NCBI GenBank assembly: GCA_002724315.1
Contig: PBOJ01000069.1
Coordinates: 1-61,356 of the forward strand
Length of the DNA stretch: 61,356 nucleotides
Source: Planctomycetaceae bacterium
GTDB lineage: Bacteria; Planctomycetota; Planctomycetia; Planctomycetales; Planctomycetaceae
Direction: 5' to 3'
The position numbers and the translations under genes were made by a program. This document shows, piece after piece, positions 28,398-29,683 of the stretch (positions within the stretch are counted from its first letter, which is position 1; the number at the start of each line of letters is the position of its first letter). The notes under the pieces are model-generated. The model had not been told where the DNA came from, made no database searches, and saw only the letters and a program-made list of their open reading frames with translations.

Positions 28398-28949
28398 TTA
28401 CTGAATCAGCACCTTCGTGTCGCCGGCAACGGCTTTCAGAGCAGCCTTGTTCAGCTTGCCCTTTTCAAAGCCCTTGTTCGACGCCACCCGCCCACGCTTC
28501 CACATGAGCACGGTCGTTTCCGCGCCCTTGTTGATCTTGTAGGTGGGAGGACCACTGATGCCATCAAAGATGGTCAGCGGCACATTCTTGACTGCAAGCT
28601 TCTTCGCCAGTGCCTTGAGCTTCGGCTCATCGACATCCGGATCGTCACTGAGGACGACAACGAACGCCTTCAACTGGCTCTTCTTGTTCTTACCAACTGC
28701 TGCATCGACTTGCTTGACCAGACCGGCCAAGTTGTCCGTGATCGTGCGTGTGAAAATGCCGACCGTCGGACGGTTGCCATAGCGTCAGCGATAGCAGAGT
28801 TTTTTGCCCTTGAACGGGCCAGTGATGTCCTGGACGTTGAACGCCGAGACACCCTGTCCGGGACGCAACCCGGATTTCACATCTGCTGCTTCCGAAACGG
28901 CCGCCGCCACGATCAACAACGCAGCAGACGAAACCAGCATACGGTTCAT
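28398..28949 (-). CDS. Exported thioredoxin-like selenoprotein with CxxU motif (TGA read as Sec)
   Basis: The ATG ending at 28949 has a good ribosome site (GGAGG, 8 bases upstream) and opens a signal peptide (MNRMLVSSAALLIVAAAV). The frame meets TGA at 28787-28785 and then continues open, still protein-like, to a stop at 28398, giving 183 residues with the TGA as residue 55. Around it the protein reads KKLCYR-U-RYGNRPTVGIFTR, so C52 and U55 form CxxU where a CxxC redox motif is expected. Downstream the thioredoxin-like pattern continues with LKAFVVVLSDDP, NVPLTIFD and a GPP region. A hairpin follows the TGA. I infer selenocysteine insertion and a redox role outside the cytoplasm. Without readthrough only a 54-residue fragment would be made. 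Confidence 0.82.
28757..28779 (-). promoter_or_regulatory. Candidate bacterial SECIS hairpin of the CxxU protein
   Basis: It begins 5 bases after the TGA. The core stem is ACCGU/ACGGU with loop CCG, extended below by C-G and then U-A/G-C pairs across two mismatches. The loop starts 15 bases after the TGA. The loop is small and its G is third, so it is a less canonical SECIS than the one in the peroxiredoxin gene; an alternative 4-bp stem CCGA/UCGG has loop CGG. Confidence 0.5.
28785..28787 (-). other. In-frame TGA, proposed selenocysteine codon (U55)
   Basis: The codon falls three residues after a cysteine (C-Y-R-U) in the place of the second redox cysteine. The frame before it has a signal peptide and ribosome site, and the frame after it codes for 128 more residues with thioredoxin-like character, so a stop here would cut a coherent domain. 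Confidence 0.8.
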
Positions 28950-29064
28950 CCGTCGTTCCTCCATCGTGCCTAAAACGGGACCAGGCAACCCCTTGGCTAC
29001 CTCTTGTCGTGATCATACGCAGATTCGGGAGTGATTGTCGAGAGCCCGCACCCCGAGAACACAC

Positions 29065-29107
29065 AAAAACCATCGATCACCAACAACAGGCCAGTGACCG
29101 ATGGTTT
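29065..29107 (-). terminator. Terminator after the peroxiredoxin selenoprotein gene
   Basis: On the minus strand AAACCATCGGTCAC pairs with GTGATCGATGGTTT (imperfectly in the middle), with a loop of about 14 bases, and is followed by TTTTGTG. It lies 37 bp after the stop at 29144 and separates this gene from the CxxU gene, so the two selenoprotein genes are probably separate transcripts. Confidence 0.7.
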
Positions 29108-29143
29108 GAGTTGCAGCGTCACGATGCCGGAAAATCGGCCTGG

Positions 29144-29683
29144 CTACTTGGCCGCTTCGACTCCCAACGCCTTGAGCGTCGCCGCAGCGGTAGCACCGTC
29201 GGTGGCCGCCTTGACCTTGCGATCGACCTTCAGGATCTTGCCGTCCTTGCCGATGTAGAAGGTCCAACGAAACGGGACCGCTCGCTTGTCGGTGACCACG
29301 CCGTAGGCCCGGGCCACCTTCTTGCCGGGGTCACTGAGAATCGGGTAGTCGACCTCGAGGGACTTGGCGAAATCGGTGTTCCGCTTGACCGGATCACAAC
29401 TGGCGGTGAAGTAGGCGACGTTGAACTTCTTCAGCGCTTTGCCGTTCGAACCGAACGACTGACACTGCTTGGTTCAGCCACCGGTGAAGGCCTTGGGGAA
29501 CCACGCGATCACCACGGCCTTCTTGCCCTTGAACTGGGACAGTTTGTAGGTCTTGCCGTCGCTGCCCTTGAGCGTGAAGCCAGGGGCGGCATCACCTTTC
29601 TTGAGCATTGGCGCGGCGGCGGAGGCCGATTCGACGGTCATAGCCAGCAACGCGCCGGCGGCCAACAGGGCCAGAATTTTCAT
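29144..29683 (-). CDS. Exported peroxiredoxin with selenocysteine at the peroxidatic position (TGA read as Sec)
   Basis: The ATG ending at 29683 follows a GGAG-like ribosome site and opens a signal peptide (MKILALLAAGALLAMTVESA). The AhpC/TSA domain then reads APGFTLKGSDGKTYKLSQFK, VVIAWFPKAFTGG, and a TGA at 29476-29474 (residue 70), followed in frame by TKQCQSFGSNGKALKKF, YFTASCDPVKRNTDFAKSL, YPILSDPGKKVARAYGVV and FRWTFYIGKDGKILKV to a TAG at 29144 (179 residues). In the BCP/peroxiredoxin Q group this site reads TPGCT or TGGCT, and the cysteine is the peroxidatic one, so the TGA sits at the catalytic residue. C74 may be the resolving cysteine. A SECIS-like hairpin follows. Likely reduces peroxides in the periplasm. 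Confidence 0.88.
29441..29459 (-). promoter_or_regulatory. Candidate bacterial SECIS hairpin of the peroxiredoxin
   Basis: A 7-bp stem, GUCGUUC paired with GAACGGC, closes a five-base loop GGUUC. The loop begins 21 bases after the TGA. A GGU in the apical loop and this distance match the bacterial SECIS design known from E. coli fdhF, which SelB recognises. The hairpin lies inside the coding region, as expected in bacteria. Confidence 0.75.
29474..29476 (-). other. In-frame TGA, proposed selenocysteine codon (U70)
   Basis: It replaces the peroxidatic cysteine codon of a peroxiredoxin (FTGG-U-TKQC). The reading frame is intact on both sides, so a single-base error would have to hit exactly the catalytic codon. 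Confidence 0.87.

What the first reader, a model, noticed from the sequence alone, without database searches (positions are those of the whole stretch)
28398..29683. Two adjacent exported redox selenoproteins
Two neighbouring genes on the same strand each have one in-frame TGA exactly at a predicted catalytic redox residue: U55 in a CxxU motif of a thioredoxin-like protein and U70 at the peroxidatic position of a peroxiredoxin. Both have signal peptides, ribosome sites, open and coherent sequence on both sides of the TGA, and a hairpin just after it. Standard annotation would break both into fragments. Together they suggest a selenium-dependent peroxide/thiol system outside the cytoplasm, possibly with one protein reducing the other, next to sulfur amino acid genes. 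Selenoprotein peroxiredoxins are known in some bacteria; this exported pair is, to my knowledge, not described.
Basis: partly seen in the sequence, partly recalled or inferred. Interest (0 to 1): 0.93.

Follow-up and report, generated by a model that had tools for sequence, protein, structure and literature searches.

The report
New exported selenoprotein beside selenium peroxiredoxin
A planctomycete bacterium carries, side by side, two genes whose internal TGA 'stop' codons sit exactly where their relatives have a key cysteine and are likely read as selenocysteine; one encodes a peroxiredoxin and the other a member of an unnamed family that is predicted to be exported and to act as its redox partner.

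Summary
Gene A (29144-29683, minus strand) is an AhpC/TSA peroxiredoxin with TGA at the peroxidatic codon (PKAFTGGU). Gene B (28398-28949) has TGA in a CxxU motif (LCYRURYG) that is CxxC in most relatives. The genome has SelA, SelB, tRNA-Sec (anticodon tca) and a SelD with its own TGA. Two other assemblies keep both TGAs, and codons after each are under purifying selection. SelA is present in 16 of 16 genomes checked through named TGA loci and in 18 of 32 others. A's hairpin covaries across 17 sequences and is kept by 1 of 25 Cys forms; B's is weaker. B matched no Pfam or NCBIfam family. Its predicted fold is redoxin-like, but the CxxU lies before the central strand, not at the usual thioredoxin site. 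A peroxiredoxin lies upstream of B in 27 of 103 loci. All four Sec/Cys combinations of the pair occur, so Sec is optional in each partner. Terminator-like and promoter-like patterns between A and B make a shared transcript doubtful. Export, and the reduction of A by B, are inferred, not shown.

The parts
29144..29683 (-). Gene A: predicted exported AhpC/TSA (PrxQ/BCP-like) peroxiredoxin, 179 aa with Sec
   Evidence: (PF00578 104.8 bits, PF08534 82.1 bits)
29474..29476 (-). In-frame TGA, residue 70 of A, peroxidatic position of PKAFTGGU
   Evidence: Cys or Sec here in 18 of 18 A-type rows
29441..29459 (-). SECIS-like hairpin of A, 14 nt after the TGA codon
29615..29683 (-). N-terminal signal-peptide-like segment of A (about residues 1-23)
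   Evidence: read from the sequence; no predictor run
29693..29696 (-). GGAG ribosome-site-like stretch before A
   Evidence: sequence
29067..29107 (-). Terminator-like hairpin between A and B (18 pairs)
   Evidence: pattern scan; 2 sites found, 2.0 expected in shuffles; same place in L071
29012..29041 (-). Sigma-70-like promoter TCGACA-18-TATGAT before B
   Evidence: 1 found, 0.2 expected in shuffles; same pattern in L071 and L119
28398..28949 (-). Gene B: predicted exported redoxin-fold CxxU protein of an unnamed, mainly planctomycete family, 183 aa with Sec
28785..28787 (-). In-frame TGA, residue 55 of B, second position of C52-Y-R-U55
28734..28771 (-). Possible SECIS hairpin of B (weaker evidence)
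   Evidence: no RNAalifold consensus; z +1.08
28884..28949 (-). N-terminal signal-peptide-like segment of B (about residues 1-22; pLDDT under 50 for residues 1-4 and 8-22)
   Evidence: sequence
28958..28962 (-). GGAGG ribosome-site-like stretch before B
   Evidence: sequence
28326..28357 (-). Terminator-like hairpin after B (14 pairs)
   Evidence: pattern scan

Best explanation
Two adjacent genes each hold one in-frame TGA at the codon where relatives have a conserved cysteine, and these are likely decoded as selenocysteine to give a predicted exported peroxiredoxin (A) and a predicted exported redoxin-fold CxxU protein of an unnamed family (B) that would act as A's redox partner. Shown here: the TGAs, the Cys in relatives, the Sec-decoding genes, purifying selection past both TGAs, the covarying hairpin of A, and the recurrent peroxiredoxin-B adjacency. 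Inferred: U70 of A attacks peroxide and is resolved by the invariant C74; B's C52/U55 pair then reduces the U70-C74 bond outside the cytoplasm, with electrons from a membrane DsbD-type protein, of which one was found in this genome. Sec in either protein would be an optional upgrade of Cys, swapped in lineages that keep the Sec machinery.
For: Own genome: SelA 485 bits, SelB 314 bits (336.7 with its neighbour in the frame), tRNA-Sec 75.5 bits with anticodon tca, SelD 336.6 bits with one TGA. Both TGAs kept in L071 and L119. dN/dS after the TGA 0-0.11. SelA in 16 of 16 genomes whose named locus has a TGA form of A or B, and in 18 of 32 others (Fisher p 0.0016). In one search, SelA in 11 of 12 TGA-B genomes and 6 of 25 other B genomes. 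A hairpin: 95% of cells paired, 4 of 7 pairs with changes on both sides, covariation score reached by 0 of 500 shuffles; same columns in 25 A-Cys genes 50.3% paired. B-Sec genes more stably folded than B-Cys genes (24 against 85 rows, p 1.6e-6, not corrected for relatedness). B: Cys or Sec at 52 in 110 of 111 rows and at 55 in 109 of 111; the next commonest Cys column has 14. Peroxiredoxin upstream on the same strand in 27 of 103 loci, match 105-405 nt away. One DsbD-type protein found.
Against: No experiment shows Sec insertion, export, peroxidase activity or an A-B reaction. A and B may be separate transcripts here (pattern scans). In 76 of 103 loci no peroxiredoxin was found upstream of B within 1.6 kb. 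Sec states of A and B are not coupled (U/U 3, C/C 3, U/C 1, C/U 1 of 8 loci with an A-type neighbour). In the shuffle control of A's hairpin, the number of pairs with both sides changed (4) was reached by 115 of 500 shuffles. B's hairpin is weak by some measures. Before B's TGA, dN/dS against L071 is 0.659, though on 3 changes only. B's CxxU is not where thioredoxins have it, so a thioredoxin-like reaction with A is not assured. One of 12 TGA-B genomes (G290, 84% complete) and one of 14 TGA-A genomes (G061, 90% complete) showed no SelA.
Confidence: 0.6

Rival explanations
1. Both are selenoproteins, but B is not A's reductant: B is an independent exported thiol-redox protein (for example a disulfide reductase or a peroxidase of its own) that happens to sit near peroxide-handling genes.
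For: No peroxiredoxin within 1.6 kb upstream of B in 76 of 103 loci; in 12 loci B lies near a beta-propeller protein with CxxCH haem sites, one of which matches CCP_MauG just under its cut-off; possibly separate transcription of A and B; CxxU away from the usual thioredoxin site.
Against: The peroxiredoxin neighbour, upstream and on the same strand in each of the 27 loci, recurs beside B sequences only about 40-55% identical to this one and with two peroxiredoxin subtypes.
Confidence: 0.3
2. The TGAs are ordinary stops or sequencing errors in decaying genes.
For: Standard gene callers would break both genes; 24 of the 120 best database matches of B are 110-132 aa pieces covering 60-66% of it.
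Against: Both TGAs recur in L071 and L119, purifying selection continues past them, each falls on a residue that is Cys or Sec in nearly all relatives, and Sec machinery is present.
Confidence: 0.02
3. TGA is read as tryptophan (a recoded genetic code), so the residue is Trp.
For: Two database relatives of A (P0123, P0128) show W at this position, as if translated with such a code.
Against: TGA is an ordinary stop nearby (the Cys/Met-metabolism gene stops at 29791-29793), the position is Cys in other relatives, and tRNA-Sec with anticodon tca is present.
Confidence: 0.01
4. Only A is a working selenoprotein; B's UGA is poorly recoded in this lineage and mainly yields the truncated form.
For: Weak hairpin of B in some tests and no common B structure by RNAalifold.
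Against: dN/dS 0.05-0.11 after B's TGA; 24 of 111 B rows carry the TGA, in several planctomycete lineages; synonymous-shuffle result for the group.
Confidence: 0.07

Closest known systems
Selenoprotein peroxiredoxin (Prx, PF00578, TxxU), e.g. the Eubacterium acidaminophilum enzyme (title seen in the reference list of PMC9312934)
   Same: A has PxxxTxxU and AhpC/TSA matches over the cut-off.
   Different: A has a signal-peptide-like N-terminus (by eye), and its second Cys is at +4 (U-x3-C) rather than +5 as in the more distant peroxiredoxins upstream of many other B genes. I did not compare A with the E. acidaminophilum sequence.
PrxQ/BCP peroxiredoxins (e.g. PDB 3drn, Sulfolobus Bcp1)
   Same: Best solved relative of A by profile, E 7.9e-26.
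   Different: Sec in place of the peroxidatic Cys; A does not reach the NCBIfam cut-off for NF006960 (81 of 140 bits).
ResA/DsbE/TlpA thiol-disulfide oxidoreductases and Tpx/Bcp peroxiredoxins
   Different: 8-17% identity in the rows shown; no Cys at their active-site position in 111 B rows; CxxU/CxxC sits before the central strand.
[quoted passage not shown] Prx-SELENOW and Prx-like-AhpD-like clusters also cited in PMC13188914)
   Same: Two neighbouring selenoprotein genes, in the first two cases one a peroxiredoxin (passages read).
   Different: The partners there are SelW-like, Prx-like or AhpD-like; B matches none of the NCBIfam or Pfam models for such families.
Other CxxU selenoproteins of the 2026 inventory (PMC13188914 Table 1), e.g. 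SELENOW-like, Trx7/PDZ protein, Prx-SUH
   Same: CxxU motif; several are thioredoxin-like by name.
   Different: No match of B to NCBIfam (E up to 0.1) or to a relevant Pfam model.

Membership tests
Bacterial selenoprotein (A) | In-frame TGA aligned with a conserved Cys of homologues | tested here: met
Bacterial selenoprotein (A) | SECIS-like hairpin just after the TGA, conserved by covariation | tested here: met
Bacterial selenoprotein (B) | In-frame TGA aligned with a conserved Cys of homologues | tested here: met
Bacterial selenoprotein (B) | SECIS-like hairpin just after the TGA | tested here: inconclusive
   supportive; not:
Bacterial selenoprotein (A and B) | Genome encodes SelA, SelB, SelD and tRNA-Sec | tested here: met
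Bacterial selenoprotein (A and B) | Selenium actually present in the protein | not testable with these tools
   needs 75Se labelling or mass spectrometry
Peroxiredoxin, AhpC/TSA family (A) | Pfam match over the gathering score and PxxxTxxC/U motif | tested here: met
Peroxiredoxin, AhpC/TSA family (A) | A conserved second Cys that could resolve the peroxidatic residue | tested here: met
   C74 in 18 of 18 A-type rows; that it resolves U70 is inferred
Peroxiredoxin, AhpC/TSA family (A) | Peroxidase activity | not testable with these tools
   needs an enzyme assay
Thioredoxin (PF00085) (B) | Match to the Pfam model | tested here: not met
   no thioredoxin model among the 13 families matched by any of 27 members at E up to 0.1
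Thioredoxin (PF00085) (B) | Thioredoxin-like fold | tested here: met
   predicted model only
Thioredoxin (PF00085) (B) | CxxC at the end of the central strand / start of the next helix | tested here: not met
   CxxU at 52-55 precedes the strand 62-67, and there is no Cys in columns 65-97 of 111 rows; from predicted secondary structure, coordinates not seen
A selenoprotein family of the 2026 inventory (B) | Match to the family's NCBIfam or Pfam model | tested here: not met
   families listed there by other kinds of model (cd, PTHR), and GOS_A of PMC2398784, which has no model, were not tested
Operon of A and B | No terminator or promoter between them | tested here: inconclusive
   pattern scans only: both kinds of site in the window and L071, promoter-like site and a short terminator-like stem in L119, neither in L134

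The most novel reading that the evidence does not exclude
B founds a new class of redoxin-fold protein whose redox pair has moved from the usual active site to the segment before the central strand, and which serves outside the cytoplasm as the dedicated reductase of peroxiredoxins and perhaps of other peroxide-handling proteins; planctomycetes upgrade either half of this exported peroxide system with selenocysteine where they keep the Sec machinery.
Probability: 0.35. Interest if true: 0.75.

Novelty: new variant of a known kind. Interest (0 to 1): 0.62.

Why it matters
It adds a selenoprotein family that I did not find in the 2026 inventory I read (Table 1 of PMC13188914) and whose closest Sec forms appear among the best database matches only as pieces (24 of 120 listed). 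It would place selenium chemistry outside the cytoplasm of a phylum whose selenoproteins are little described in the papers I found. The four Sec/Cys combinations of one recurrent gene pair make a natural set for asking what Sec adds to each half of a peroxide-reducing relay. If B's CxxU really sits away from the usual thioredoxin site, it also shows a redox centre built elsewhere on a familiar fold.

Tried and rejected
RNAalifold on the 24 B-Sec rows gave no common structure, and none on B-Cys or A-Cys rows. Codon shuffles of a stretch with the TGA codon gave z +1.08 for the window's B. Profile comparison of B with A aligned only 42 N-terminal columns (probability 54%), so kinship over the whole length rests on the predicted fold. 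The profile search of solved structures gave two matches for B at E 0.19 and 0.94, neither a redox protein by name. Literature searches; the 'CYRC/CYRU' search returned noise in the 20 of 7,429 papers listed. What I saw of papers: PMC4807772 passages and section 17; PMC13188914 passages, sections 7 (parts 1-2 of 3) and 9; PMC1794560, PMC9312934, PMC5029168 and PMC2398784 passages only.

The 'operon' reading was considered and not adopted because of the sites between A and B, which are pattern matches only. A strict coupling of Sec in A and B was considered and dropped because U/C and C/U pairs exist. My first tree count of peroxiredoxin adjacency (9 changes) wrongly had L079 as lacking the neighbour; the corrected count is 8 changes over 104 rows, 28 of them with the neighbour (this includes L023, the twin of L076). 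An earlier count said TGC for L115 and L142 at the first Cys; the sequences show TGT.

Rows dropped: L052, L053 and, for the neighbour counts, L023 as copies of other loci; L050, L072, L078, L108 and L112 for short upstream DNA. In one search only matches at E up to 1e-25 were asked for. In one search, 50 of the 79 named loci were given (48 genomes); 29 were not examined. One search kept the best 80 of 81 confirmed stretches and was scanned with patterns from planctomycete sequences, so its taxonomic spread is biased. The tree is a quick one with 44 of 105 inner branches weakly supported.

Full report
What is there. On the minus strand, gene A runs from ATG at 29683 to TAA at 29144 and gene B from ATG at 28949 to TAA at 28398. 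Each has exactly one in-frame TGA: residue 70 of A (29474-29476) in PKAFTGGU-TKQC, and residue 55 of B (28785-28787) in LCYRURYGNRP. Both have N-termini that read like signal peptides (by eye) and GGAG-type ribosome sites.

Is the TGA read? The window's genome (5.69 Mb, 91.8% complete) has SelA (485 bits), SelB (314 bits), tRNA-Sec (75.5 bits; ARAGORN gives anticodon tca) and SelD (336.6 bits) with one in-frame TGA of its own. Two named assemblies, UBA9460 (L071) and RS383 (L119), keep both TGAs. Between window and relatives, dN/dS after the TGA is 0 (L071) and 0.098 (L119) for A and 0.051 and 0.108 for B; before the TGA it is 0.155 and 0.13 for A and 0.659 (3 changes only) and 0.097 for B. 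The stretch beyond each TGA is selected as protein. TGA is also an ordinary stop here, as for the gene ending at 29791.

Across genomes. B was found in 37 of 294 phylum genomes at E up to 0.001, 12 of them with a TGA form. SelA was present in 11 of these 12 (not G290) and in 6 of the 25 other B genomes, one of the six below the family cut-off. Through named loci, SelA was present in 16 of 16 genomes with a TGA in A or B (this includes L134, where only A has it, and L138, where it is at B's first Cys) and in 18 of 32 others (Fisher p 0.0016). For A at E up to 1e-25, 17 of 294 genomes matched, 14 with TGA; SelA in 13 of 14 (not G061) and in 1 of 3 Cys-only genomes. Of 111 B rows, codon 55 is TGA in 24, TGC or TGT in 85, and other in 2. 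On a quick tree the U/C state needs at least 6 changes over 109 rows.

Hairpins. The A hairpin starts 14 nt after the TGA codon. In 17 A-Sec sequences 95% of cells pair, 4 of 7 pairs show changes on both sides (115 of 500 shuffles reach that number), 16 cells do (0 of 500 shuffles), and 0 of 500 shuffles reach the covariation score; sliding the partner by 1-3 columns drops pairing to 24-61%. In 25 A-Cys sequences the same columns pair in 50.3% of cells, and 1 of 25 rows keeps at least 6 of 7 pairs against 16 of 17 A-Sec rows. By synonymous shuffles the A-Sec rows differ from A-Cys rows at p 0.013. For B the picture is mixed. Against synonymous shuffles, B-Sec genes have mean z -1.59 (12 of 24 at p under 0.05) and B-Cys genes mean z -0.5 (10 of 85); the two groups differ at p 1.6e-6 without correction for relatedness. 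But no common structure was found, and the window's own B is only moderately stable.

What A is. Pfam AhpC-TSA 104.8 bits and Redoxin 82.1 bits. Its best solved relative is Sulfolobus Bcp1, 3drn. The peroxidatic position is Cys or Sec in 18 of 18 A-type rows and a second Cys at +4 is present in 18 of 18. The more distant peroxiredoxins found upstream of other B genes carry that Cys at +5, as in BCP (recalled).

Neighbourhood. A peroxiredoxin lies upstream of B on the same strand, its match 105-405 nt away, in 27 of 103 loci with at least 900 nt of upstream DNA. On the tree this label needs at least 8 changes over 104 rows. Twelve loci have a beta-propeller protein with CxxCH haem sites near B, 11 of them within 600 nt; one representative matches CCP_MauG at 25.0 bits, just under the 25.6 cut-off. 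Among the eight loci with an A-type peroxiredoxin directly upstream the (A,B) states are U/U in 3 (window, L071, L119), C/C in 3 (L076, L081, L088), C/U in L093 and U/C in L134. The three C/C genomes have no SelA match, while those of L093 and L134 do. In L098 both are Sec but 4.5 kb apart.

Transcription. A terminator-like hairpin (29107-29067) and a promoter-like site (29041-29012) lie between A and B; shuffles of this stretch give 2.0 terminator-like and 0.2 promoter-like sites on average, against 2 and 1 found. Both recur in L071 (1 and 1 found, 0.2 and 0.0 expected). L119 has the promoter-like site and only a short scanned terminator, though a longer inverted repeat followed by T is visible in the sequence. 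The scan found neither in L134. The pair is therefore best described as tandem genes, possibly transcribed apart.

Mechanism, with its steps marked. Shown: TGA at conserved Cys, Sec machinery, selection, A hairpin, recurrent adjacency. Inferred: Sec insertion, export, peroxide reduction by U70, resolution by C74, reduction by B, and electron supply by a DsbD-type protein (one such match in the genome). I put 0.6 on the whole statement and about 0.95 on both being selenoproteins.

Novelty. Sec peroxiredoxins are known (PMC13188914 Table 1), and neighbouring selenoprotein gene pairs (Prx with SelW-like or Prx-like 2, Prx-like 1 with AhpD-like 2) were reported from marine reads (PMC2398784, passages). 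Planctomycete selenoproteins were reported in two alga-associated genomes (PMC4807772 section 17), whose list I could not read. I found no report of B or of this pair in the searches named under Tried and rejected. B fits none of the inventory's families by the models I could search. I therefore call it a new variant of a known kind.

Noticed in passing
L138 (Fuerstiella sp. cluster2_bin.2), B gene near 10001-10525: TGA stands at the first Cys of the motif (UYRC), while close relatives L115 and L142 have TGT there; its genome has SelA, but no strong hairpin follows, so a sequencing error is possible.
   Followed up: partly
L098 10001-10549 and 15045-15635: Another lineage with both a Sec form of B and a Sec form of an A-type peroxiredoxin, 4.5 kb apart on the same strand.
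   Followed up: no
window 33626-35365 (-): A thioredoxin domain (GPGCLACQRM) fused to a trypsin-like protease domain, next to the sulfur amino acid genes.
   Followed up: partly
window 29791-30927 (-), 31038-32546 (+), 32565-33578 (-): Two Cys/Met-metabolism PLP enzymes and a PALP (cysteine-synthase-like) gene lie on the upstream side of A.
   Followed up: partly
L150 (own genome, contig C40): A second, Cys-type relative of B (SVCYVCRNGSRP) in the same genome, 32% identical.
   Followed up: partly
L026, L027, L031, L033, L035, L037, L087, L096, L097, L098, L136, L137: B lies near a beta-propeller protein with one or two CxxCH haem sites; the one representative scanned is CCP_MauG-like, just under the cut-off.
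   Followed up: partly
L087 10001-10558 and 11016-11498; L042: Tandem B genes: one Cys and one Sec copy in L087, two Sec copies in L042.
   Followed up: no
window 22728-27638 (-): A 1636-aa frame with a PQQ_2/BamB-like match lies downstream of B; related frames follow B in 13 loci, the window's own included.
   Followed up: partly
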